DNA of 64,000 nt from Rubrivivax sp. (lineage in GTDB: Bacteria; Pseudomonadota; Gammaproteobacteria; Burkholderiales; Burkholderiaceae_C): the NCBI GenBank assembly GCA_030680415.1, contig JAUXVE010000009.1:1-64000 (forward strand), in the 5' to 3' direction. Of the stretch, positions 1,185-51,479 are shown in pieces. Position 1 is the stretch's first letter. Each line of letters opens with the position of its first letter. The translations under genes were made by a program, and so were the position numbers. The notes under the pieces were generated by a model. It was given only the letters and a program-made list of their open reading frames with translations, did no database searches and was not told where the DNA came from.

Positions 1185-3359
<2,175 letters not shown>

Positions 3360-3374
3360 GTCGCCGCAGCGTGG

Positions 3375-6368
3375 TCAAGCTGGCTTGGTGCCAGTGGCGG
3401 AAAAGCAGCGCTCCGCCAGGGTGCCCTGCCAGGCGGCGTCGAACACCAGGTCGCAAATCAACTCCTCCGCGGAGCCGCCCTCCAGCGCCAGGCTGCCCAC
3501 GCGTTGCCAGCGTTCGTCGCGGAACGCGGCCCCAAGACTGCTGAGCAGTCCTTGCTTGTAGACCGTGTCCTCGCCGGCCAGGTGCAGGCCCTTGGTTTCC
3601 AGCAGCACGAGTCGCCTTGTGTCGCGCGCCGTGTCCATCGCGAACACGAAGTCGGGATAGACCTTGCCGCGCTTCCAGCCTTGCAGGCCGACATGTGCCT
3701 TGGCCACGTTGCGGTGCCACCAGCGCACGGCCTGCTGCTGGTCGAGGTAGCCCGCGACCTTGACTTCAAACTCGTTCAGGTCAGCGGTTCGCAAGGCCGG
3801 TTCGAGCAGGCTCTTCTCCATCGGGTGCCCGTCGCTGTCGCGCACCAGGGGTTGCAACGATCCGGTCGTCTCGATGGTGTAGTGCTGCGGCAGCTCGTAG
3901 TCAGCGGCGTCGGCGCGCAGCCGGAACTCGATGCGCCCCGCGTCGAGCAGCGCCTTGAACTCGACTTCAGCCAGGCGGTCGCGCTCGGCTTGCACGTCCA
4001 GGCGCAGCCGTTCGATCAGTGATGCCGTGGATGCGGCCAGCGCCGATTCAGCGTACCCCGCGGCCAGCAACCGCTGCTCCACGGCCGCCAGCCAGGTCCA
4101 GGCGTGCCACGGGTTGGGCGCCAGATCGGACAGGGCGCGCACGATACGCACCCTGTCCAGGGTGCGGCCCGCATCGCCCTCGGCGGGCAGATCCGCCGGC
4201 ACGGCGCCGGACAACACATCCAGGCCGATGGACAGGTGCCCCGTGCCCCCGCGTGCGGCATCGGGTGCCCATTGCCGCGCCAGGCCTTCGGCTGAAAAGT
4301 CCTGCCAGGGCACGCGCGCCAGCACGTCGCTTTCATATACCAGTGGGCGGCGCGAATGGTCGGCTTCCACCCAGGTGACCTTGGGCACGAAGATGCGCAT
4401 GCCCTGCCAGGGTGCGCGCCGCAGTGTCTGGATGGGTCGTGGCACCCCCGGATCGGCCTCACCACCGCGCACGGTTACGCCCAGGTCGCCCATGCCTTCG
4501 TCTTCCAGCGACTTCTTGATCGCCCGCACCACGTCGCCGGTGCGAGCGTCGTGGCACAGCACATAGCAGGCGTCCAGCGCCGGCCGCCCGGTCTTGGCCA
4601 CGTGCGGCAAGCGCAGGATGCGACCCACCAGCTGTGTCATCGCGGCCAGGTTGCGCCCCGCAGCCAACGCGCACAGCACATACGCGAACGGGCAGTCCCA
4701 GCCTTCCTGCAGCGCCTGCTTGGTGATGATCACCCGCACTTCGCACCGGGGTGAAAGCAGGTCGATATTTTCTGGCGCCTTCAGGTCGTTGCGTTCGCTG
4801 GTCTTGATGGCGATGTGGCGCTCTTGCAGGCCCAGACGCAGCAGGTAGTCCTTCACGTCCTCGGCGTGGATCAGGCCGGCGTCGCGTGTGTCGGCGCCGG
4901 TGCGTTCCACCTGCACCAGCATGATGGGGCGGATGTAGCGCGCCGTTTCGCCATGCAGCGCCGTGGCTTCGTGCTGCAGGTCGTCGAGCTGCTGCAAGGC
5001 GGCAGCCACGCAGCCCTGCCATTCGCTCCAGCCGCGCACGTCCACCTGGATGGGCAGCTTGATCATCTCGGCATCGTCGAGGTCGGTGCCGCGCACGTTG
5101 CACAGGATGTTGGAGCCGCCGCCCTTCGGACTTGCCAGCCGAGGTGTCGCCGAAAGCTCCAGCATGAAACTCGGGTTGAAGCCGTCGATGGTTCTCAGCG
5201 CCGTATCGCTGTAGGCGTGGTGACCTTCGTCGATCACCACCACGGGCCGCAGCAGGCGCATCACGTTGCCGAGCGAACTCTTGATGATGGAACCCATCTG
5301 TGCCCGGGCCTCGACGGCACTTTTGCCGCGGTCCATGTATACGTCGAGGTTCGGCACCGCGTGCACCAGATTCCAGTGCGCCTGCAGGTCGTCTTCGCGC
5401 GGCAGAAAGCCCAGCACGTTGCCGCGGTCGCGGAAGAACTTCAGCGTTTCCTTGCTGGCGCGGGCGGCGCTTTGCAGCATCAGCACCATCACGCACAAGT
5501 GGGATGCCACGTCTTGCCGGGTCAGCGGCGAGTTTTTTTCCAGCACCTTCACCCGGCCCGCCGCGGCGACATTGAGCATCTGGCGGTAGGGGTGGTCGCG
5601 GTGCGTCAGCGCGCCGAGGGTCTGGCGGTAGATGGCCTCGTTGGGCACCACCCACAGCACGAGCCCGGTGCTGCGCCCCAGGTAGGACTGCATCACCTGC
5701 GCCACCGAGGCGGCCGCCAGCAAGGTCTTGCCGCCGCCCGTGGGCACCTTCAGGCACAGGTTGGGAATGGCGCGGCCGGCGCCGTCCCAGCGGCTGTTGT
5801 AGGGCTGCGCGGCATATGCGGCGGGCAAACCATGGGTCTCCTTCAGCATGGCCCAGGCCCGGCTCGGAAAATCCGCCAAGCTGCGCGCCTGGTCTTCCAT
5901 GCCTTCCATGGCGCGCAAGGCGGCCATCGCCGTTTCGGCCTGCGCACGGCAGCGGTTCAATGCGGTCAGGTAGCGGCCCAGGGCCGCCAGCGCCTCGGTT
6001 TGGAAGCCCTTGAGCGAGATGCCGCCCAGCGCCTCGACGTCGGCCGCCCGGCGCACCGGCTCCCAGAAGACGACGCGGTCGCGTTCTATGCGAGACCTGA
6101 ACTTTGCATCCAGCGCTTCGCTGAGCAGGACATAGTCCAAGCGGTAGAGCAGTTGCAGTTGTTCGATCCGGGCTCCGAAAGCCGCGCGTTCGGCGGGCGA
6201 CCAGCCCGGCGCATCGATGGCCAGATCGATATCGGAGTCGGGCCGTTCCAGGCCGCGCGCGCGCGAGCCGAAGACCCACACCCGGTCGATGCCGGGCACG
6301 CCGGCGAACAGTGCCCGCAGCCGGGCGACCGTGCCCGGTGCGATGCCGAAGAGCGGTGACGGTCTCAC
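3375..6368 (-). CDS. Fusion protein: N-terminal MNT (MntA-like) nucleotidyltransferase domain + type III restriction subunit Res (SF2 helicase + PD-(D/E)xK-like nuclease)
   Basis: GTG start overlapping the upstream HEPN stop (GTGA). N-term FGSRARGLERPDSDIDLAID...YRLDYVLLSEAL (MNT motif and third Asp), then PTGGGKTLLAAAS (Walker A), VVVIDEGHHAY (DEGHH), TKQALQEGWDCP, and C-term YPDFVFAM...LLETKG. No stop between domains. Confidence 0.88.
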   Translation of the reverse strand: MRPSPLFGIAPGTVARLRALFAGVPGIDRVWVFGSRARGLERPDSDIDLAIDAPGWSPAERAAFGARIEQLQLLYRLDYVLLSEALDAKFRSRIERDRVVFWEPVRRAADVEALGGISLKGFQTEALAALGRYLTALNRCRAQAETAMAALRAMEGMEDQARSLADFPSRAWAMLKETHGLPAAYAAQPYNSRWDGAGRAIPNLCLKVPTGGGKTLLAAASVAQVMQSYLGRSTGLVLWVVPNEAIYRQTLGALTHRDHPYRQMLNVAAAGRVKVLEKNSPLTRQDVASHLCVMVLMLQSAARASKETLKFFRDRGNVLGFLPREDDLQAHWNLVHAVPNLDVYMDRGKSAVEARAQMGSIIKSSLGNVMRLLRPVVVIDEGHHAYSDTALRTIDGFNPSFMLELSATPRLASPKGGGSNILCNVRGTDLDDAEMIKLPIQVDVRGWSEWQGCVAAALQQLDDLQHEATALHGETARYIRPIMLVQVERTGADTRDAGLIHAEDVKDYLLRLGLQERHIAIKTSERNDLKAPENIDLLSPRCEVRVIITKQALQEGWDCPFAYVLCALAAGRNLAAMTQLVGRILRLPHVAKTGRPALDACYVLCHDARTGDVVRAIKKSLEDEGMGDLGVTVRGGEADPGVPRPIQTLRRAPWQGMRIFVPKVTWVEADHSRRPLVYESDVLARVPWQDFSAEGLARQWAPDAARGGTGHLSIGLDVLSGAVPADLPAEGDAGRTLDRVRIVRALSDLAPNPWHAWTWLAAVEQRLLAAGYAESALAASTASLIERLRLDVQAERDRLAEVEFKALLDAGRIEFRLRADAADYELPQHYTIETTGSLQPLVRDSDGHPMEKSLLEPALRTADLNEFEVKVAGYLDQQQAVRWWHRNVAKAHVGLQGWKRGKVYPDFVFAMDTARDTRRLVLLETKGLHLAGEDTVYKQGLLSSLGAAFRDERWQRVGSLALEGGSAEELICDLVFDAAWQGTLAERCFSATGTKPA

Positions 6369-6751
6369 GGCTGCGACAGGCGCGCAGACAGGCGGTCGAA
6401 GGCGGCCACGCCGGGGCCCCGCACAAAGGCCGCCACCTGCACCGCCAGTGCCTCCTTGTAGGTGTGGCTGGTGAGATTGCGGCACTCGCGCAGCTGGTCC
6501 CAGACGTCGGCATCGTCGATGAGCTGCGACTGGAAGGCCACGGGAAGAACAGCCCAGGCCTGCTGGGCAACGCGCTCACCCTTGGTGGCAAGGTAGCGGT
6601 GCAGGCATCGCCAGGTCATCTCGAACGTGAACTCGAAGCGCTGGATCAGGGCGTCGCGGACGATGCCGGTTTCGTTTTCGCGCAGCACTTCGTGCAGACG
6701 GGCCAGAGCCCGCTCGAACTGCTCGCGCTGGTCCTCGAATCGTTCGTCCAC
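6365..6751 (-). CDS. HEPN-domain protein, HepT-like / nucleotidyltransferase substrate-binding family (HI0074-like)
   Basis: MDERFEDQREQFERALARLHEVL...FEFTFEMTWRCLHRYL...LRECRNLTSHTYKEAL; contains RNLTSHTY = Rx4HxY. GTG start, 3-nt gap after the mod stop. Confidence 0.88.
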   Translation of the reverse strand: MDERFEDQREQFERALARLHEVLRENETGIVRDALIQRFEFTFEMTWRCLHRYLATKGERVAQQAWAVLPVAFQSQLIDDADVWDQLRECRNLTSHTYKEALAVQVAAFVRGPGVAAFDRLSARLSQP

Positions 6752-6754
6752 GGC

Positions 6755-8587
6755 TCAACCCTCCCGGTACAGCGCAAACGGCAGAGGCGCATAGTCCACG
6801 CCATGCTGCTTGAGTTGCTGGTTGCTCAGGTATTTGGCGGGCGCGAAGACCAGGTGCGCCTTGCGCTCGCCGCCGGCCGCGTCGGCCTCACGGCCCCACT
6901 GCGCGATGCGCTGCGCCAGCGTCAGTGTCAGCGCGGCCTCGGGGCTTTTCAGGAAGGCGAGGTCGGGCCGGTACACCAGCCAGACGTGGCGGTCTTGCGC
7001 CTCAACCAGGTACCACGGTGGTGCATCGGCCGGCGGCGCCGGCAACGTGCCGCCGGTGGCGGTGTGGAAGAGCCATTCACCCAGCGCGGCAACGGTGGGC
7101 AGACGTTCACCCGACAACATCATTTCCAGGTTCAACGGCTCGCCCAGCGTGCAGTAGGTGAAGCTGCCGCCCAGCCCCGGCGCGCGTTCGCTGACCTTGC
7201 GCACGCCCTCGACACGCAGCACGCCGTCGTCGACCGTGGCTTCGATGCTGTCGAAGCGCCTGGGCGCCGTGCTGCCCTGGTCGGCCAAGTCGCCGGCGGC
7301 GAAGCTTTCGCGGGCCTTGATCGCTTCCACCTGCGCCAGCAGTGCGTCGGCCTTCTTCAGCTGCGTGTAGGTGATCTTCTGTGCCAGCAGCGTCTCGCGC
7401 TGCGTGCCTTCCCAGGCATAGCCCTTGATGGCGCGGCGCACGCGTTCGGCAGTGAGCGTGTCGGCGTAGGCCTCGCCTTCCACCAGAATGAAACGGCGTG
7501 TGCCGCCGTCCTTGGCGTTGGCCCTGAGCACGGCGTGTGCGGTGGTGCCGGAGCCGGCGAAGGAGTCGAGGATGAGGGAGTCGCACCCACTGCACAGATC
7601 GATTACTCGCTCCGCAAAGGGTAGCGGCTTCGGGAAGTCGAAGACTCGCGCCCCCATGATTCGGTCAACTTCATCGAAGCCGGAGACACCCTTGAACTCT
7701 GTCCAGAATGTCGATTCGGGCATGCGCTCGGCCGTCTCCGATAGGAAGCGCTTTTTTCGAGGCTTGCCCGTCTTCGGGTTCGGCGGCCACCAAATGCGGC
7801 GGTCGTTCAAGAGAGCCTGGAAGCCAGCCGCGTCCGTGATCCAACCAAGAGACGGATCCGGCGCGTACAGGTCGCCCGTTCCCGGGTTCTCGATGATGTA
7901 GTGCAGGTTGGCGCGCCTCTCAGCCGTCGCTTTTCCGGTCAACGGATCAGTCACATAGGCGCCGCGGTTGTCGCCATCTGGGTTCGCAAAGTCGCTGCGG
8001 TCGATCACCCTTCCACGTACCGTCCGGCTGCCGGAGTAGAGCAAGACGTACTCATGGTCCACAGACAGGCGAGACTTGACGCGGTTGTCGGCATTCCTGG
8101 TTCGCCAAACAATCGACCCTACGAACTGCTCATCACCAAGGAGTTCGCTGCAGGCGTTGTGGAGTCGGTGCAGTTCGTTATCGTCAATGCACATCGCCAG
8201 AACCCCAGTGGGGCTGAGCAACTCCCGCAGCAGCGTCAGCCGCGGCCACATCATGCACAGCCACTTGTCATGGCGCAGCATGTCGTCTGCGTCCACCGGG
8301 TTGGTGCTCAGCCACTCGCGCATGATCGGCGAGTTGACGCCGTCGCTGTAGCACCAGCCCTCGTTGCCGGTGTTGTACGGCGGGTCGATGAAAATGAGGT
8401 CCACTTTGCCGGCGTAGCGCGGCAGCAGGCTCTTCAGCGCGGCCAGGTTGTCGCCGTGGATGATGAGGTTGCCGCCCAGGTCCGGCGCACCTACGCCTTT
8501 GTCGGCATCCACCACCAGGGGCCGGTAGGGCACGGTGAGGTGGTGGTTGTAGACAAACTCCTTGCCCTTGAAAATGATCTCTGGCAT
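6755..8587 (-). CDS. Type III restriction-modification DNA methyltransferase (Mod), beta-class amino-methyltransferase
   Basis: MPEIIFKGKEFVYNHHLTVPYRPL...DLIFIDPPYNTGNEGW (DPPY) preceding DSFAGSGTTAHAVL (FxGxG). Confidence 0.93.
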   Translation of the reverse strand: MPEIIFKGKEFVYNHHLTVPYRPLVVDADKGVGAPDLGGNLIIHGDNLAALKSLLPRYAGKVDLIFIDPPYNTGNEGWCYSDGVNSPIMREWLSTNPVDADDMLRHDKWLCMMWPRLTLLRELLSPTGVLAMCIDDNELHRLHNACSELLGDEQFVGSIVWRTRNADNRVKSRLSVDHEYVLLYSGSRTVRGRVIDRSDFANPDGDNRGAYVTDPLTGKATAERRANLHYIIENPGTGDLYAPDPSLGWITDAAGFQALLNDRRIWWPPNPKTGKPRKKRFLSETAERMPESTFWTEFKGVSGFDEVDRIMGARVFDFPKPLPFAERVIDLCSGCDSLILDSFAGSGTTAHAVLRANAKDGGTRRFILVEGEAYADTLTAERVRRAIKGYAWEGTQRETLLAQKITYTQLKKADALLAQVEAIKARESFAAGDLADQGSTAPRRFDSIEATVDDGVLRVEGVRKVSERAPGLGGSFTYCTLGEPLNLEMMLSGERLPTVAALGEWLFHTATGGTLPAPPADAPPWYLVEAQDRHVWLVYRPDLAFLKSPEAALTLTLAQRIAQWGREADAAGGERKAHLVFAPAKYLSNQQLKQHGVDYAPLPFALYREG

Positions 8588-9629
8588 GAACGCAAACGCT
8601 CCCGTGAACGCCCATTCTCGCCTGTCCAGGACGCTGGGGCCCTTCGAAGTGCCGCCCATCGGCCTGGGCTGCATGAACCTCAGCCACGCCTATGGCGCGC
8701 CGCCGCCGGCGGAGGTGGCCGAGCGGCTGCTGCTGGAAGCGCTGGACCTCGGCGTGACCTTGTTCGACACCGCCGCGCTGTACGGCTTCGGCGCCAACGA
8801 AACGCTGGTCGGCCGCGTGCTGAAGCCGCACCGGTCGAAGATCGTGCTGTGCAGCAAGGGCGGCATGGCCGGGGTGCAGTTCGACGATGGCATGAAGCGC
8901 GTCATCGACGGCCGCCCCGAGGCTATCCGCCGCAACTGCGAAGACAGCCTGCGCCGCCTGCAGACGGATGTCATCGACCTGTACTACCTGCACCGCTGGG
9001 ACAAGCGCGTGCCCATCGAGGACAGCGTCGGCGCCATGGCCGACCTGGTGCACGCGGGCAAGGTGCGCACGATCGGCCTGTCGGAGGTTTCGGCAGCGAC
9101 GCTAAGGAAGGCGCACGCCGTGCACCCGATCGCCGCGGTGCAGACCGAATATTCGCTGTGGACACGCAATGCAGAGATCGCGGTGCTCGACACCTGCCGC
9201 GACATCGGCGCCGCCTTCGTCGCCTTCAGTCCGGTGGCGCGGGGTTTCCTGACGCTCGAGCCGCCCGACGTGGCCGCGCTCGACGCCAAGGACATCCGCC
9301 TCGGCATGCCGCGCTTCCACGCCGAGCCTTACGCCGCCAACCTGCGCCTGCTGCCGGCCTACCAGGCCGTCGCCGCCGAGGTCGGCTGCACGCCGGCACG
9401 GCTGGCGCTGGCCTGGCTGCTGGCGCGCGGCGAGCACGTGATCCCGATCCCGGGCACGTCGAACATCGAGCACCTGCGCGACAACGTCGGCGCCGCTGCA
9501 GTGAGGCTCGCGCCCGGCGTCGTGGCACGGCTCGACGCGCTGATCAACCAGGACACGGTTGCCGGCGAACGCTATGGTGCGCAGTCGGCGAGCGAAGTCG
9601 ACACCGAGGTCTTCACGGCCGCGCGCTGA
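8586..9629 (+). CDS. Aldo/keto reductase
   Basis: GLGCMNLSHAYG...FDTAALYGFGANETLVGRVL...DLYYLHRWD...IPIPGTSNIEHLRDN; start codon overlaps the divergent mod start (alternative GTG at 8604). Confidence 0.9.
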   Translation: MNANAPVNAHSRLSRTLGPFEVPPIGLGCMNLSHAYGAPPPAEVAERLLLEALDLGVTLFDTAALYGFGANETLVGRVLKPHRSKIVLCSKGGMAGVQFDDGMKRVIDGRPEAIRRNCEDSLRRLQTDVIDLYYLHRWDKRVPIEDSVGAMADLVHAGKVRTIGLSEVSAATLRKAHAVHPIAAVQTEYSLWTRNAEIAVLDTCRDIGAAFVAFSPVARGFLTLEPPDVAALDAKDIRLGMPRFHAEPYAANLRLLPAYQAVAAEVGCTPARLALAWLLARGEHVIPIPGTSNIEHLRDNVGAAAVRLAPGVVARLDALINQDTVAGERYGAQSASEVDTEVFTAAR

Positions 9630-44227: not shown

Positions 44228-47200
44228 TCAACCGATCTCGACCTGCAAGGTGTTGCGCCCGGGCGCGCAGGCCGCCACGAAGGCCGACCACGCGACCAAG
44301 GCCGCGCCCCTGCGGTAGGCGTTGGCGCGGCGCGTGTATGCGAGAGGCTGGCCGTTGAGCGTGAGCGAGCGCACGCCGCAGCCCGCCGCGCCGACGCGGT
44401 AGTGCAGCACCAGCGCATGCCCGTCCAGATCGGTCTCGACGCGCAGGCCGTCGAGCGCGCTCGGCAGCACCGGGTCGATGACCAGCCGGCCGTGTTCGCG
44501 GTCGATGCCGACGAAGTGCCGCATCACCAGGCCCAGCGCCAGGCCGGGGCCGCTGGAATAGATGCGCCAGCCGCCCTCCAGCGGCACCGTGCCGGCGTTG
44601 ATGCGGGCGTAGTCGCGCAGTGCTTCGTAACGGTCGGGGAAGGCGGCGTCGGAACTCGAGTAGTAGCAGTTGGCCTGGCGCGCGGCGGCACTCGGCACCC
44701 AGTGGCGCAGGCCGATCGGGTGCGCCCGGCACAGCGCGGCGAAGAAGCCCACGGCGTCGCCCACGTGCGCCAGCGTCTCGGCGTAGCGCAGGTGCGCGTG
44801 CATGTACATGACGCCGATCTCGCGGCCGAAGTAGGCGCTGCTCTCGGCGCGCTGGAACAGCGTTTGCGGCCCGCCGCGGTAGGCCATGGGGGCGTCGAAC
44901 AGGCGCGCACCGTCGGCGCCGCTCAGGTGGCGGGCGATCAGCGCCAGTTGCTCGTGCGCCTGCGCCGGCGTGAGCATGTCTTCCAGCACCGCATGCATCA
45001 TCGGCAGCAGGCTGTAGCGCAGGCCCGTGAGGCGGTCGCCGGGGTGCAGCAGCAGCGCCGGCGCTGCGTCTCCTTGCTCTGGAAACAGCGCATAACCGGC
45101 CACCACGCCGTCCTGCACCAGCAGGCGCTGGAAGTCGGCGTGCACACGCGCGGCCTCTTCGGCCAGCGGCTGCGCGTCGGCGGCGCGGCCGCTGCCGCGC
45201 AGCGCCGCGACCAGCGCCACCAGCATCTGGTGGTGCAGCGTCACCGTCCAGGCGCTGCACATGCGTTCGCGCAGCGCCGGGTCGGCCGGCTGCAGCGCGT
45301 CGTTCCAGTCGCCGTGCCAGTAGGCTGCCAGGTGCGTGCCGGCGATGCGGCGCGACGCGATCAATGCCAGTGCGCGCTGCACGTGCTGCCACAGCGCAAA
45401 CACCTCGTCGCTGCCGTGGAAGGGCAGCGGCTCGTCGAGCAGGCCCGCGTCACCCGAGGCCGTGAGGTAGCGCGCCAGGCCCAGCAGCGGCCAGAACACG
45501 ATGTCGCCGTGCGAGTCGCCGGCGCGCAGGTGGCGGTCGCGCTCGAAGAACATGAACCACTGCGGCCAGTCGCCGTCGTCGTTCTGCGCCGCAAAGGTGC
45601 GCAGCAGCAGGTCGCGCACGGGCGCCGTGCGGCCGCAGGCCAGCAGCAGCTCCAGCGGGCCCTGGCAGACGTCGCGCGTGCCCCAGCCGCCCCCCGAGTA
45701 CTGCTCCAGTCCACGCGGTGCCAGGTAGTGCACCAGCGCGTTGTGCAGGTACCAGGGCAGGATGTCGGACAGCCGCGACACGTCGGCGGCGTGCGGCCCG
45801 GGCGCTGCATGCAGGCGCAGCGCCGGCAGCGGCGGCGCTGCCGGCACGGCCGGGCCCGGCACCAGCCGGCCGAAGATGCGCAGCGCGAACGCCGGCGCGG
45901 CCACGGCCTCGATGCAGACGTAGGGCTGGCCATGCGGGCGGCCGTCGGCAAACAGCGCTTCGTCGCCGGCGACGCGGGCAAAACGGCTGTCCGCTGCCGG
46001 CTCGATGACGAAGCCGCCGTGCGGGAAGCGCTGCGCGAGCTCGCTGCCGGGCGGCGGCGTGAGCAGGACGCCGTCGCCGTCACTGCGCCAGCACGCCGCG
46101 CCGCCGCCGCTGCCGTCGTCGCCGCCGAGCGCCACGTGGTGGGTGACGAGCAGGCGCAGGGACCCGCCGCTCGTCACGTCCACCGCCAGCTCCAGCGCCT
46201 GCGGTGCATGCAGCGCGAGACTGCGCACGGCAAAGCTGCCGCCGCGATGCTTGTAGATCCAGCAGCAGCCGTCGGGCCGCATCTCGAACGCCGAGGGCAG
46301 GCCGAGCTGCTGCCATACGCCGTCGAGGTGGACGAAAACGCGCTGGCCTTGTGAACGGAACTGCCCCAGGTAGCCGTGCACCGTGGACAGGAGGCGGTTG
46401 ATGCTGACGTGTCCCTGCGTGACCATGGAATGGAAGACGCCGCCCATCCACACCGTGGAGGTCAGCGAGGTCTCGTCCGGCGTCAGGTGCCTGCCGGTGC
46501 GCAGGATGTGACCGTGCGGGCGCAGCACCTGTCCCTCCTTGGCGCGCATCACGACATGGCAGGCGTCGCTGGTGAAGAAGGACAGCAGCGCCTCGCCGTC
46601 GTGTTCTTCGTGCCGGCGCGCGCTGCCGAAGAGGGCATCGATCTCGGCGGCGTCGAGATCCAGCGTGGCCAGCCAGGGTGCGGCGCTGAACAGCGTGGCG
46701 GCCGGCGCGATGCCTGGCGTCACGGGCGCGCTGGCCGCCGCCGACGCTTCGGGCAGGGCCAGCGTGGCGTCGACGAACGCCAGGTCGGCGTCGCCGCTGG
46801 CGGCTGGGTGGTCGGCTTCGACGCGACCGAAGAATCCGAGCCTGGCGGTCTCACCCGGCTGCAGCGTGAGCGGTGCGTCCTGCACCGCGATCATCGCGTG
46901 CTCGTGCTGCAGGCGCTGTGCCGGCAGGCCTTGCAGCAGGCCGGCCGGCGCCGCACCGGAGCGCGCGGCCAAGCCCAGCACCTGCAGCGCATCGGTGGCA
47001 AATGCCACGCCGCGGCGCAGGGAACCCAGCACCGCCCAGGGGTGGCGCCCGCCGAGGCCGCCCACGGCAAGGTTCTGCCGCGCCGCCACCACGCAGCCGC
47101 GCTCGGCGTGCTGCAGCGGCGTGAGGTCGATGTAGTGGCTGACGTAGTGTTCGTTCAGGCGCACCGCTGCGTAGGCGCTGAGTGCGATGTCCTGCACCAG

Positions 47201-47590
47201 CACGAGGTCGATCACCTGTGCCTGGGCGTCGTCGTTCTCCACTTGCACATGCCAGAACCAGGCCGCGGCGCCCTGCGCGAGCCTGAGCGTGAGCAGCCAG
47301 CGCAGCCCGTGCGCGCTGCCCGCGGCCGCATAGCCGGCGTCGGCCGTGTCGCCGAAGTGCAGCCGCGACCCGCTCGCCGGCCCGAGCAGCGGCACGAGTT
47401 GAACGCCGCCAGCGCCATGCCGCCGCAGCCACAGGTTGGCGGGCGCGCCCTCGACTTCATTGCCGACGAACAGGTTCAGCAGGTCTGCGCCGCGACCCAG
47501 GCGGCGCATCGAGCCGTTGGCGTTGATCTCGCACCACAGGCCCGACGGGCTGCGCAGCGTGCATGCGTGCTTGGCACGGCGGCTGATCAT
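44228..47590 (-). CDS. GH94-like glycoside phosphorylase, possibly 1,2-beta-oligoglucan phosphorylase
   Basis: VLVQDIALSAYAAVRLNEHYVSHYIDLTPLQH; GGGWGTRDVCQGPLELLL; HGDWNDALQ; YFGREIGVMYMHAH. Confidence 0.72.
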   Translation of the reverse strand: MISRRAKHACTLRSPSGLWCEINANGSMRRLGRGADLLNLFVGNEVEGAPANLWLRRHGAGGVQLVPLLGPASGSRLHFGDTADAGYAAAGSAHGLRWLLTLRLAQGAAAWFWHVQVENDDAQAQVIDLVLVQDIALSAYAAVRLNEHYVSHYIDLTPLQHAERGCVVAARQNLAVGGLGGRHPWAVLGSLRRGVAFATDALQVLGLAARSGAAPAGLLQGLPAQRLQHEHAMIAVQDAPLTLQPGETARLGFFGRVEADHPAASGDADLAFVDATLALPEASAAASAPVTPGIAPAATLFSAAPWLATLDLDAAEIDALFGSARRHEEHDGEALLSFFTSDACHVVMRAKEGQVLRPHGHILRTGRHLTPDETSLTSTVWMGGVFHSMVTQGHVSINRLLSTVHGYLGQFRSQGQRVFVHLDGVWQQLGLPSAFEMRPDGCCWIYKHRGGSFAVRSLALHAPQALELAVDVTSGGSLRLLVTHHVALGGDDGSGGGAACWRSDGDGVLLTPPPGSELAQRFPHGGFVIEPAADSRFARVAGDEALFADGRPHGQPYVCIEAVAAPAFALRIFGRLVPGPAVPAAPPLPALRLHAAPGPHAADVSRLSDILPWYLHNALVHYLAPRGLEQYSGGGWGTRDVCQGPLELLLACGRTAPVRDLLLRTFAAQNDDGDWPQWFMFFERDRHLRAGDSHGDIVFWPLLGLARYLTASGDAGLLDEPLPFHGSDEVFALWQHVQRALALIASRRIAGTHLAAYWHGDWNDALQPADPALRERMCSAWTVTLHHQMLVALVAALRGSGRAADAQPLAEEAARVHADFQRLLVQDGVVAGYALFPEQGDAAPALLLHPGDRLTGLRYSLLPMMHAVLEDMLTPAQAHEQLALIARHLSGADGARLFDAPMAYRGGPQTLFQRAESSAYFGREIGVMYMHAHLRYAETLAHVGDAVGFFAALCRAHPIGLRHWVPSAAARQANCYYSSSDAAFPDRYEALRDYARINAGTVPLEGGWRIYSSGPGLALGLVMRHFVGIDREHGRLVIDPVLPSALDGLRVETDLDGHALVLHYRVGAAGCGVRSLTLNGQPLAYTRRANAYRRGAALVAWSAFVAACAPGRNTLQVEIG

Positions 47591-50500
47591 CGCGGGCGTC
47601 CCGGTGCCGCCGCGGCGGGGTCGGCGAGCAAGTGCACCAGCGCGGGTGCCGGCGGCAGCGGCAGTTCACGCCCTTGCCAGGCCAGCGCCTGCCCCTGGTG
47701 CCAGGCACGAGGCAGCGGCAGGCCCTTCGGCCAGGCCAGGCGCAAAGCGGCCGGGGCCGCCAGTGCCCGCGGCAACTGCAGCGTCCAGCCACCTCTGGCA
47801 GGCTGCAGGCTGTACTCGAGCCGTCCATGCGAGGTGGACAGGCCGCGCACCGCGACGCCATGTGCCAGCCACTCGGGCTTGAAGCCGGCACCGATGACCA
47901 GCGTGTCGTCGGCCTCGCGCTCGTAGGCGAAGAGGTCGAGCGCCGAGCGGATGTAGTCCGACGACACCCAGGCGTGCGGCATGTCGCCCAGGAACCTGAG
48001 GTCGCGCAGGCCGGGCAGCACGACCTCGGCCCATTGGTTCCAGCCCGGCGGGCGTTGATCGGCGAAGAAGAAGCGCAGCAGCGCGTGCGCGCGTTCGGCC
48101 TGCCCCAGCCGCACCAGCGTGCCCACGGTGCGCAGTTCGTAGGGTGTGTAGTCCTTCCAGGCGCGCCGGCCTTCGGCGCGCTGCTGCGCGAACTGCCAAT
48201 AGCGTTCGAAGGTGGCCGCCAGCAAGTCCGGTGGCACGGCGGCCTGTGCCGGGTTCAGCGCCATGGTGGTCGACGTGGCGTCGAAGTCGCCGCGATCGGC
48301 GGCGCCGGCGATGAACCCGATGCCGTGAAACGCGGCGGTGGCCGTGATCGACGCCGACAGTTCGCGCTCGAACGCGTCGCGCCAGCCGGCCCACAGGGCA
48401 GCCTGCGGTTCGTGGCCCAGCGCGCGTGCGATGAGCACCGCGTCCTTGTATCCGCGCAGGCCCCAGAAGTCGTCCCAGTAGGAATAGGCCGGCTTGTCGG
48501 CGTAACCCTCGTGGCTGATCGAAGGCGGCAGCAGACCGAACAGGTGCGCGCGCTGCGGCGTGCGGTTGGCGGCCGTGCGCTCGCTCTGGCGCAGGCCCTC
48601 CTGGTAGGCCACCACGCGCTGCACGCGCAGCCAGTGGCGGGCGAGCCAGGCGGTGTCGCGGGTGTGGCGCCACAGCTCGGCCACTGCGTAGAGGTACTGG
48701 CCGTGGCTGTCGTTCTCGGCCACCGGGTCGGCGCCGCGAGCGTCGACGCAGCAGGGAACCTTGCCCGACTCGAAGATGTGGCCGGCGTACCAGTCGGTGA
48801 ACTGGCGCGCGGCGTCGATCTCGCCCAGCCGTACCAGGCCGGCGACCATCATCGCGCCGTCGCGCACCCACGACCGTGCGTAGGAACGCGTGCCGGGCTG
48901 CAGCGCCGGGCCGTCGCGCGACATCAGGATGTGAGCCAGCGAAGTGCGCAGCGTGTCGACGAGGGGCAAGGCGTCGGGCGGCACGTCGAGCGCGACGCGG
49001 TGCAGGCGCTGGCGCCAGTGGGCGGCGGCGGCGTCGAAGCGGGCGTCGAGCGTGGCGCGTGTGACAGCGGCAGAGGCTGCCCCTGAACCCGGCAGTCCCA
49101 GCGGCGCGACCCAGCCGAAGACATGGCTGCCACCGGGAGGCAGCGTGACGCTGAACTGCAGCGCTGCGGAGGCGTGGCGCTGCGGGTCGCGCAGCGTGGC
49201 CAGCGCCGGTGCAGCCAGCAGGGTGTCGAGCCCGATGCCACCGTCGAGAGGCAAGGCGGTGACGCGCTGCGGCGCGGCCGTGGCGCGCAGCGTCCTGCCG
49301 TTCACCGCCAGCCTCTCGCTCTGCCAGCGCAGCGTGTCGATGGCGCTGGCGCCGCCCGGCGTGGCCAGGAACTGCTGCGGCGGGTTGACCTGCCAGGGCC
49401 GCACCGCGAGCACCAGCGTAACGCGGCGCGCCGCGGCACCGGTGTTGCGCAGCACGTAGCGCGCCAGCACTTCGGGGGCGCCGCGCGGGCCGTCGGCCGC
49501 GGCCTCGATCTCCAGCGTGAAGGCGGCGTGGCGCCAGCGCACCAGCGGCAGAGGCAATGAGCGATCGCGCAGGCTCTGCGTCACTTCGACGTCGGCCCAG
49601 CCCAGCGGCGCACCACCGTCGACGCGCACCGCCGGCTCGACGCTGAAGCCGCCGCGGCCGACTTCGATGGCGCCGTCTTCGCTCATCAGCGCCGAGCGCG
49701 CGCCGCCGCCGTCGACCCCCACCAGTGCCCAGTAGTTCTGCTCGCCGACGAAGGCCCGCGGCAGCTGTCCGCGCGGTGCGTCGGCGGCCAGGCTGGCGAG
49801 CACCGCGTTCAGTGTCGGCCACTGCTCGGCGCTGCGCAGTTCGACCGTGGGCCGCCCCATGCTGCGCCGCCGCTGCACGCGCAGGTGGCGGGCTTCGCTC
49901 TCGGGCAGGAACAGCGCGTCCAGGCCACCGTCGCTGCCGCGCAGGCGGCGCAGCGCGCGCCAGTGTCGGCCGTCGCTGGAACCCAGCACGTCGTAGTCGA
50001 TATCGCGCACGCCGTCGGGCCAGCGCAGCGCCAGGCCGTTGAATTCACGCACCCGGCCGAGGTCAATGTCGGTCGTGCGTGCGTCATGGCGGACCTGCGG
50101 TGCGGGCCAGGCCGCCGGGTCGGGCTGGCGCTCCTGCAGCGTCAGCCGCGCCACGCACAGCGAGCTGCGGCCGCCGCCGCGGCCGGCGGCGACGACGAAT
50201 TCGACGAACTGCGTTTCGCGCAGCGTGCGGTCGGCCGCCGGGCCCCAGGCGAAGTCGATGTGGCGGCGGCGGATTTTCAGCTCGGTGAGCCGGCCCGGCA
50301 ACGCAAGATCGGGGCGGTTCATCCACCAGACGTTGTCGCCGCCGGCGTCGACGAGCTTGAACTGGATGTCGTTGGTGGCGCCGCCGCCCTTCAGCCGCGC
50401 CACGAGGTCGAAGTGCTCCGGCCAGGCAACGGGCAGCGCGCGCCGCATCACCGCGTAGCCGGAGACGCCGGCATAGTCGACGTCCAGGCACAGGCTGCCG

Positions 50501-50664
50501 TCGCTATCGCGTCGCAGCGCGGCGCGTACCTGGTCCGACGCCGTGGCCTGCCAGGCGCCCGCACCACGGAAGTCGTCGAGCACCTCGTGGCGCAACGGCG
50601 CTGCCTGCGTCACCTGTACCAGCAGCGCCCACGGCAGCCACAGTGCAGCGAACCACCTCGTCAC
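47587..50664 (-). CDS. Secreted protein with discoidin (F5/8 C)-like N-terminal region and six-hairpin glycosidase-like C-terminal domain
   Basis: N-terminal hydrophobic signal; FNGLALRWPDGVRDIDYDVLGSSDGRHWRALRRL; SYARSWVRDGAMMVAGLVRLGEIDAARQFTDWYAGHIF; SYWDDFWGLRGYKDAVLIA; GTG start overlaps upstream permease stop. Confidence 0.68.
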   Translation of the reverse strand: MTRWFAALWLPWALLVQVTQAAPLRHEVLDDFRGAGAWQATASDQVRAALRRDSDGSLCLDVDYAGVSGYAVMRRALPVAWPEHFDLVARLKGGGATNDIQFKLVDAGGDNVWWMNRPDLALPGRLTELKIRRRHIDFAWGPAADRTLRETQFVEFVVAAGRGGGRSSLCVARLTLQERQPDPAAWPAPQVRHDARTTDIDLGRVREFNGLALRWPDGVRDIDYDVLGSSDGRHWRALRRLRGSDGGLDALFLPESEARHLRVQRRRSMGRPTVELRSAEQWPTLNAVLASLAADAPRGQLPRAFVGEQNYWALVGVDGGGARSALMSEDGAIEVGRGGFSVEPAVRVDGGAPLGWADVEVTQSLRDRSLPLPLVRWRHAAFTLEIEAAADGPRGAPEVLARYVLRNTGAAARRVTLVLAVRPWQVNPPQQFLATPGGASAIDTLRWQSERLAVNGRTLRATAAPQRVTALPLDGGIGLDTLLAAPALATLRDPQRHASAALQFSVTLPPGGSHVFGWVAPLGLPGSGAASAAVTRATLDARFDAAAAHWRQRLHRVALDVPPDALPLVDTLRTSLAHILMSRDGPALQPGTRSYARSWVRDGAMMVAGLVRLGEIDAARQFTDWYAGHIFESGKVPCCVDARGADPVAENDSHGQYLYAVAELWRHTRDTAWLARHWLRVQRVVAYQEGLRQSERTAANRTPQRAHLFGLLPPSISHEGYADKPAYSYWDDFWGLRGYKDAVLIARALGHEPQAALWAGWRDAFERELSASITATAAFHGIGFIAGAADRGDFDATSTTMALNPAQAAVPPDLLAATFERYWQFAQQRAEGRRAWKDYTPYELRTVGTLVRLGQAERAHALLRFFFADQRPPGWNQWAEVVLPGLRDLRFLGDMPHAWVSSDYIRSALDLFAYEREADDTLVIGAGFKPEWLAHGVAVRGLSTSHGRLEYSLQPARGGWTLQLPRALAAPAALRLAWPKGLPLPRAWHQGQALAWQGRELPLPPAPALVHLLADPAAAAPGRPR

Positions 50665-51479
50665 TTCACGCTGCCCATCAGCAGCCCCTGCATGTAGTAG
50701 CGCTGCAGCGCCAGGAACAGCAGCAGCACCGGCAGCACCGTGATCACCGCGCCGGCCATCATCAGCTCGCTGTCCTGCACGTGTTCGCGCGCCAGCGAGG
50801 CCAGCGCCACCGGCAGCGTGTGCAGGTCGCCGTCGGTGAGCACGATCAGCGGCCACATGAAGTCGTTCCAGCTGCCGAGGAAGGCGAACACCGCCAGCGT
50901 CACCAGCACCGGCTTGAGCACCGGCAGCACGATCGAGAAGAAGATGCGGAACTCGCCCGCGCCGTCCATGCGCGCGGCTTCGATCAGCTCGTCAGGGATG
51001 CTGCGTGCGTACTGGCGCACCAGGAAGATGCCGAAGATGCTGGCCAGCCCCGGCACCAGCACGCCGGCGTAGGTGTTGACCAGGCCCATGCCTTTGAGCA
51101 TCAGGAACAACGGCAGCATCGCCACCTGACCCGGGATCACCAGCGCCGCAATGAGCAGCGCGAACACCTTGTCGCGCCCGGCAAATTTCAACTTGGCGAA
51201 GGCGTAGCCGGCGAGCGCGTTGAGCAGCGTCGAGATCGCGGTGGCGGCCACGGCGAGCACGAGGCTGTTGACGAAGGCGCGGCCGATGCCGCCCTGCGCC
51301 AGCAGCTGTGTGTAGTGCTGCAGCGTCGGCGCGCCGGGCAGCAGCGGCGGCGGGTAGGTGCTGGCCGCGCCGGTGGGCATGAACGACACCGAGACCATCC
51401 AGAACAGCGGGAACACCGCCAGCAGCGCGGCCAGCAGCAGCGCGGCGTTGACGGCCAGCGTGGCGAGCGGCCGCTTCAT
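50661..51479 (-). CDS. Carbohydrate ABC transporter permease (MalG/UgpE type)
   Basis: VNSLVLAVAATAISTLLNALAGYAFAKLKF...EAARMDGAGEFRIFFSIVLPVLKP. Confidence 0.92.
   Translation of the reverse strand: MKRPLATLAVNAALLLAALLAVFPLFWMVSVSFMPTGAASTYPPPLLPGAPTLQHYTQLLAQGGIGRAFVNSLVLAVAATAISTLLNALAGYAFAKLKFAGRDKVFALLIAALVIPGQVAMLPLFLMLKGMGLVNTYAGVLVPGLASIFGIFLVRQYARSIPDELIEAARMDGAGEFRIFFSIVLPVLKPVLVTLAVFAFLGSWNDFMWPLIVLTDGDLHTLPVALASLAREHVQDSELMMAGAVITVLPVLLLFLALQRYYMQGLLMGSVK

What the first reader, a model, noticed from the sequence alone, without database searches (positions are those of the whole stretch)
6458..6481. HEPN protein keeps an intact Rx4HxY motif (RNLTSHTY), and the fused MNT keeps all three catalytic acidic residues
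Seen: LRECRNLTSHTYKEAL in the HEPN ORF gives R-x4-H-x-Y. The partner has GS...DID plus a downstream Asp (RLDYVLL). Established: R/H form the HEPN RNase site and the Tyr is the AMPylation target in HepT. Both halves therefore look catalytically competent rather than vestigial, which strengthens the functional TA reading.
Basis: partly seen in the sequence, partly recalled or inferred. Interest (0 to 1): 0.6.

Follow-up and report, generated by a model that had tools for sequence, protein, structure and literature searches.

The report
Antitoxin built into a restriction enzyme
A small RNA-cutting toxin gene sits inside a bacterial DNA-restriction operon, and the enzyme predicted to switch that toxin off is fused to the front of the DNA-cutting subunit itself, an arrangement that evolved several times and suggests the cell would poison itself if its restriction enzyme were knocked out.

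Summary
The motif is real: RNLTSHTY occupies exactly window 6458-6481 (-), residues 91-98 of a 128-aa HEPN protein. The downstream protein starts with an MNT domain carrying GSx10DxD and a third Asp. Both are in register with solved HEPN-MNT toxin-antitoxin pairs and under purifying selection: R 40/40, H 39/40, Y 40/40 in HEPN; all five MNT residues 42/42. Two corrections. The HEPN is of the HI0074 family (PF08780), not HepT proper. In its closest tested relative (Legionella), the Arg and His are not needed for RNase activity; only AMPylation of the Tyr carries over safely. The larger finding is the context. The operon is mod-HEPN-MNT::res of a type III restriction-modification system, with the antitoxin domain joined by a flexible linker to the nuclease-helicase subunit. 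About 42 species-level genomes share it, mostly Burkholderiales and relatives. HEPN coevolves with the MNT domain, not with Res or Mod. Independent fusions of MNT to type I HsdR (one) and HsdS (two lineages), each behind a PF08780 HEPN, were found; a single origin is rejected (p=4e-7). Best explanation: Res keeps HEPN AMPylated, and loss or inhibition of Res frees the toxin. TA function is likely; the trigger is inferred.

The parts
6755..8587 (-). mod: type III N6/N4 DNA methyltransferase (ORF open to 8674; homologues start at residue 30, i.e. about 8587); DPPY at residue 97 and FAGSG at residue 372 intact
   Evidence: PADLOC MTase_III E=1.2e-173, Pfam PF01555, motifs
6365..6751 (-). HEPN toxin gene, HI0074 family (PF08780/TIGR01987), 128 aa; starts 3 nt after the mod stop
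   Evidence: PF08780 92.1 bits, TIGR01987 77.1 bits; AF2 pLDDT 95.8; Foldseek to 8xdj/8xeh/1wty
6458..6481 (-). Rx4HxY motif RNLTSHTY (R91, H96, Y98; Y98 = predicted AMPylation site)
6632..6643 (-). Q37-x2-E40, equivalent of the Legionella Q44/E47 Mg2+ site; in 39 relatives QE 21, LV 9, KE 8, QK 1
   Evidence: PMC11586414
6365..6368 (-). GTGA overlap: HEPN stop with MNT::Res start (translational coupling); 31 of 40 relatives have a candidate start overlapping the HEPN stop, 21 of them by 4 nt
6057..6368 (-). MNT (minimal nucleotidyltransferase) domain, residues 1-104 of the fusion protein
   Evidence: PF18765/PF01909; Foldseek to Legionella MNT 8xeo TMt 0.92, 1.3 A
6225..6269 (-). GSx10DxD motif (G34, S35, D46, D48)
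6135..6137 (-). third catalytic Asp, D78 (LLYRLDYVLL), 42/42 conserved
6018..6056 (-). flexible linker between MNT and Res (pLDDT <50 at residues 106-114)
3375..6017 (-). type III Res: SF2 helicase (GGGKT 211, DEGH 380, SAT 406, QLVGRILR 579) and PD-ExK nuclease
   Evidence: PADLOC REase_III E=6.8e-188 over residues 118-967; EcoP15I Res 4zcf; motifs conserved in 54 sequences
3591..3656 (-). PD...ExK nuclease motif (P905 D906, E924, K926), invariant
2412..3359 (+). left flank: oxidoreductase gene (OXR); followed directly by the AKR gene in several congeners (empty site)
8586..9629 (+). right flank: aldo/keto reductase gene (AKR)

Best explanation
This is a type VII-like HEPN/MNT toxin-antitoxin pair wired into a type III restriction-modification operon by fusing the antitoxin enzyme to the restriction subunit. 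While Res is present and intact, its N-terminal MNT domain AMPylates Tyr98 of HEPN and keeps the RNase off. If Res is lost, degraded or blocked (for instance by a phage anti-restriction protein) while HEPN is still made, new HEPN stays unmodified, cuts RNA and stops growth: a last-resort layer behind DNA restriction. Shown here: operon anatomy, fusion, conservation of catalytic residues, purifying selection, specific HEPN-MNT coevolution, repeated independent fusion of MNT to restriction subunits. Inferred from solved relatives: RNase activity and AMPylation. Inferred only: that loss or inhibition of Res is the trigger.
For: Motifs and folds match the AMPylated Legionella HEPN (8xdj) and its MNT (8xeo) at 1.2-1.3 A. 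R/H/Y 40, 39 and 40 of 40, and five MNT residues 42/42. dN/dS 0.06-0.21 for HEPN and 0.10-0.23 for MNT in close pairs. HEPN distances track MNT (r 0.51, 0/2000 permutations) but not the Res helicase (r 0.05) although MNT and Res are one polypeptide; partial r given Res and Mod 0.49, 0/2000. HEPN adjoins MNT::Res in 40/40, even where other genes separate mod from HEPN (L032, L035). Independent MNT::HsdR (L251) and MNT::HsdS (L228, L254) fusions behind PF08780-type HEPNs, single origin rejected p=4e-7. No intact HEPN was seen without an intact MNT; HEPN was lost or active-site-mutated with MNT kept (L014, L042), or both were lost or broken (L054, G065, L195). An enzymatic antitoxin need not be stoichiometric, so it can ride on a scarce restriction subunit (inference).
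Against: No toxicity, AMPylation or restriction data for this system. In Legionella the Arg/His are dispensable for RNase activity (PMC11586414), so 'intact motif = active RNase' does not follow directly. The trigger is untested. Congener G011 keeps a HEPN plus free MNT with no mod or Res, so the pair can persist without the restriction system. Only two loci are informative for the direction-of-loss argument.
Confidence: 0.6

Rival explanations
1. Ordinary HEPN/MNT pair captured in an RM operon; the fusion is only linked expression and there is no functional coupling to restriction.
For: The mod-res gap holds unrelated TA modules in sister systems: HicAB-like L081, DUF433/DUF5615-like L058, a PF05168-like HEPN with MNT L090/L091. 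G011 keeps the pair without the RM genes.
Against: At least four separate fusions of MNT to sequence-recognition or cleavage subunits, and single-ORF retention across about 40 species-level genomes, point to selection for the physical link.
Confidence: 0.2
2. Selfish addiction: HEPN kills cells that lose the RM operon.
For: RM and TA modules are both known addiction elements; the operon sits in a clean insertion at a site that is empty in relatives.
Against: When the whole operon is lost, existing HEPN is already covalently AMPylated and no new HEPN is made, so killing would need an unknown de-AMPylating enzyme. Chromosomal setting.
Confidence: 0.12
3. HEPN is not a toxin here but a regulatory or substrate-binding subunit: MNT-HEPN modifies or controls Res/Mod.
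For: Original HI0073/HI0074 proposal; domesticated HEPN-NTase enzymes exist (PMC3710099).
Against: Domesticated HEPNs usually lose the motif (PMC3710099), whereas it is nearly invariant here; L014 keeps MNT::Res without HEPN.
Confidence: 0.1

Closest known systems
Legionella pneumophila HEPN-MNT (PDB 8xdj, 8xeh, 8xeo; PMC11586414)
   Same: Best joint structural match for both halves; RNQTSHTY motif with AMPylated Tyr105; GSx10DxD MNT
   Different: Stand-alone MNT; RNase site assigned to Q44/E47 and Mg2+, a pair not conserved in 18 of 39 relatives of the window system
HepT/MntA type VII TA of Shewanella oneidensis (5yep, 6m6u; PMC7641770)
   Same: Rx4HxY and GSx10DxD motifs; HEPN fold (TM up to 0.77); that paper counts PF08780/PF01909 pairs in its Class I
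   Different: HepT is PF01934; MntA is a free protein with a C-terminal alpha4 helix
HI0073/HI0074 of Haemophilus influenzae and TTHA0048 of Thermus
   Same: Same Pfam family as the HEPN (PF08780)
   Different: No fusion to a restriction subunit in the solved proteins; the Thermus protein is uncharacterised in the PDB record
EcoP15I type III restriction-modification
   Same: Mod and Res architecture and motifs
   Different: No N-terminal MNT and no HEPN gene
PrrC-EcoprrI and the immunity-suicide coupling hypothesis (PMC3506569, PMC3710099)
   Same: RNase of the HEPN class held off by a restriction system
   Different: PrrC carries its own ATPase and is masked by a type I enzyme; here the inhibitor is a covalent-modifying antitoxin domain inside Res. 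PMC3506569 stated that immunity loci appear not to encode typical antitoxins

Membership tests
HI0074 family (PF08780/TIGR01987) | Score above curated cut-off | tested here: met
   92.1 vs 31.8 bits; 77.1 vs 55.8 bits
HepT proper (PF01934/NF047751) | Score above curated cut-off | tested here: not met
   15.7 vs 23.5; 17.2 vs 60 bits
Type VII HEPN/MNT toxin-antitoxin (Class I) | HEPN with Rx4HxY next to MNT with GSx10DxD | tested here: met
Type VII HEPN/MNT toxin-antitoxin (Class I) | MNT AMPylates the motif Tyr and thereby neutralises HEPN | not testable with these tools
   needs biochemistry; inferred from 8xdj and PMC7641770
Type VII HEPN/MNT toxin-antitoxin (Class I) | HEPN is a growth-inhibiting RNase | not testable with these tools
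   needs expression and RNase assay
Type VII HEPN/MNT toxin-antitoxin (Class I) | Toxin and antitoxin are cognate (coevolve) | tested here: met
   HEPN~MNT r 0.51, 0/2000; HEPN~Res helicase 0.05
Type III restriction-modification | Beta-class Mod and helicase-nuclease Res encoded together | tested here: met
   MTase_III E=1e-173, REase_III E=7e-188; DPPY before FxGxG; helicase and PD-ExK motifs
Type III restriction-modification | DNA methylation and two-site cleavage | not testable with these tools
   no assay or methylome
RM-coupled suicide system (PrrC-like) | RNase toxin released when the restriction enzyme is inhibited | not testable with these tools
   anatomy only

The most novel reading that the evidence does not exclude
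Restriction enzymes have repeatedly acquired a covalent-modifying antitoxin domain (MNT on type III Res, type I HsdR, type I HsdS), making the restriction subunit itself the guard that keeps a HEPN RNase AMPylated; anything that removes or blocks that subunit automatically triggers abortive growth arrest.
Probability: 0.42. Interest if true: 0.85.

Novelty: new variant of a known kind. Interest (0 to 1): 0.62.

Why it matters
The 2012 immunity-suicide coupling hypothesis proposed that restriction systems restrain linked toxins but noted that such loci seemed to lack antitoxins (PMC3506569). [quoted passage not shown] That turns a broad hypothesis into a single-residue test: inactivate MNT (D46/D48) without touching restriction and ask whether HEPN becomes toxic, then inhibit Res and ask whether HEPN is released. 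It also offers a natural sequence set (QE, KE and LV subtypes with near-invariant R, H, Y) for settling which residues form the RNase site in HI0074-type HEPNs.

Tried and rejected
Chance motif: rejected by conservation and selection. Pseudogene or vestigial pair: rejected (single ORFs in about 40 species-level genomes, dN/dS well below 1). Phage or plasmid element: no fused copy in viral contigs, phage records or plasmids, only unfused Res relatives. A long MNT frame in G714 (390 aa) was inspected and dropped as an unconvincing GC-rich frame. Stand-alone MNT ancestry of the G011 pair: the tree nests it in the Res-fused clade, but the alternative is not formally rejected (AU p=0.07). An L041 'missing motif' was a frame error of my script, corrected. 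First attempt to query HEPN and MNT together failed because of stop codons. Library searches for an earlier description of an MNT-Res fusion found none; supplementary files could not be read.

Full report
What is there. On the minus strand of window 8674-3375 lies a three-gene operon: mod (8587-6755), a 128-aa HEPN protein (6751-6365) and a 997-aa protein (6368-3375) that begins with a minimal nucleotidyltransferase (MNT) domain and continues as a type III restriction subunit. Mod and Res match PADLOC type III models at E=1e-173 and 7e-188, Res only from residue 118. Helicase motifs GGGKT, DEGH, SAT and QLVGRILR, the PD-ExK nuclease motif and the methylase motifs DPPY and FAGSG are intact. The genes are packed: a 3-nt gap from mod to HEPN and a 4-nt GTGA overlap from HEPN to MNT::Res.

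The observation. RNLTSHTY is exactly at 6458-6481 as HEPN residues 91-98. GSx10DxD is residues 34-48 of the fusion and the third Asp is D78. Shuffling gives these motifs in 0.6% and 0.2% of cases. Conservation is far stronger evidence: R 40/40, H 39/40, Y 40/40; all five MNT residues 42/42.

Family and register. The HEPN is PF08780/TIGR01987, the HI0074 family, and is below the HepT cut-offs. Its model (mean pLDDT 95.8) superposes on Thermus TTHA0048, on the AMPylated Legionella HEPN (TM 0.91, 1.2 A) and less closely on Shewanella HepT (TM up to 0.77). Profile alignments put the motif in register with TTHA0048, Legionella HEPN and HI0074. The MNT domain matches Legionella MNT at 1.3 A. The model of the fusion shows a confident MNT domain, a disordered linker at 106-114, then Res.

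What the motif does. In Shewanella the Tyr of Rx4HxY receives AMP groups from MntA and the GSx10DxD motif is needed (PMC7641770). In Legionella, the closer relative, Tyr105 is AMPylated but R98A and H103A hardly affect RNase activity; Q44 and E47 with Mg2+ do (PMC11586414). The window protein has the equivalent Q37 and E40, yet among 39 relatives the pair is QE 21, LV 9, KE 8, QK 1, while R, H and Y are essentially invariant. So either the RHY triad is the general site, or R and H are kept for AMPylation and the RNase site has moved.

The clade. A scan of 84,980 species genomes with the fusion protein returned 80 loci. The best 42-43 belong to the group with an N-terminal MNT (55-65% identity; Burkholderiales, Rhodocyclales and relatives, some Xanthomonadales); the rest (44-48%) start at residue about 117 and lack it. 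Within the fused group HEPN adjoins MNT::Res in 40 of 40 loci that carry it, with a candidate start codon overlapping the HEPN stop in 31, by 4 nt in 21; starts were chosen as the nearest candidate. In L032 and L035 other genes separate mod from HEPN but never HEPN from MNT. Close pairs show dN/dS 0.06-0.21 (HEPN) and 0.10-0.23 (MNT). HEPN and MNT (45% and 44% mean identity) diverge faster than Res (73% helicase, 61% nuclease) and Mod (78% catalytic part).

Partnership. HEPN distances correlate with MNT (r=0.51, 0 of 2000 permutations) but not with the Res helicase (r=0.05), although MNT and Res are the same polypeptide. The partial correlation given Res and Mod is 0.49 (0 of 2000), and within the QE subtype alone r=0.71. 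This singles out the fused MNT as HEPN's partner.

Losses. L014 has lost HEPN and kept MNT::Res; L042 has H96R with intact MNT; L054, G065 (locus L174) and L195 lack or have broken copies of both. No copy with an intact HEPN and a broken MNT was seen. This is the direction expected of toxin and antitoxin, but only two loci are informative.

Same site, different cargo. In congeners the flanking oxidoreductase and reductase genes often abut. In the nearest relative G034 the junction holds a VapBC-like pair by inspection of the translation; in G011 it holds only HEPN and a stand-alone MNT; in G065 a decayed mod/res. G011's pair nests inside the Res-fused clade (fused plus G011 100/99; inner group 99/95), suggesting that it lost mod and Res and kept the TA pair, but excluding it from the clade is not formally rejected (AU p=0.07).

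Convergence. Surveys of 369-399 genomes at order, class and phylum level with the MNT domain turned up MNT fused to other restriction subunits: G635 HEPN then MNT::HsdR (Polbeta + HSDR_N + SWI2_SNF2 + EcoR124_C), and G655 hsdM-HEPN-MNT::HsdS-hsdR (Polbeta + two Methylase_S). A targeted search added G1185 hsdM-HEPN-MNT::HsdS. Their HEPNs carry RNLTSHTY, RNLTVHTY and RNLSSHTY. On the tree the two HsdS fusions fall in different stand-alone lineages (with L244/L211 and with L205), HsdR elsewhere, and a single origin of all RM fusions is rejected (AU p=4e-7). Unfused hsdM-HEPN-MNT neighbourhoods (L207, L211) look like the preceding step. At least four fusions are implied.

Mechanism. Most likely Res (or HsdR/HsdS) carries the AMPylating antitoxin, keeps HEPN modified, and HEPN is freed when that subunit is lost or inhibited while HEPN synthesis continues. 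A catalytic antitoxin need not be stoichiometric, so it can sit on a low-abundance restriction subunit. Simple addiction is less attractive because HEPN made before loss is already modified. The coupling step is inference.

Novelty. HEPN-RM associations and PrrC-like coupling are known (PMC3710099, PMC3506569), HEPN/MNT is known type VII (PMC7641770), and HEPN-MNT near BREX is noted (PMC12839542). I found no description of an MNT antitoxin fused to Res, HsdR or HsdS in the held library; most subscription papers and all supplements were out of reach. I rate it a new variant of a known kind.

Limits. No experiments; single-chain models only; many loci are from metagenome bins; survey counts cover Pseudomonadota only; HsdR fusion n=1 and HsdS n=2.

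Noticed in passing
window 3359-8586; L158 (G034), L159 (G011), L174 (G065): The junction between an oxidoreductase and an aldo/keto reductase gene is empty in several congeners but carries a VapBC-like pair, HEPN-MNT, a decayed type III RM, or the full operon in others: a TA/RM insertion hotspot.
   Followed up: partly
L058, L081, L090, L091 (sister type III systems): The mod-res gap of related unfused systems holds other TA-like modules (DUF433/DUF5615-like, HicAB-like, PF05168-like HEPN with MNT), identified by inspection of the translations.
   Followed up: partly
window 8585-8588: The likely mod start (ATG on -) and a possible AKR start (ATG on +) share the palindrome CATG, leaving no intergenic space between divergent genes.
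   Followed up: no
L244 886-1800: HEPN and MNT read in one open frame (a HEPN::MNT fusion) between two PilT-like ATPase genes.
   Followed up: no
L261 231-563 and 1644-1979: Two near-identical Phd-like antitoxin genes (duplicated segment) downstream of the MNT::HsdS gene in G1185.
   Followed up: no
window 44228-47590: SOGP-type glycoside phosphorylase gene next to an uncharacterised 1089-aa ORF (47587-50856) with no Pfam match.
   Followed up: no
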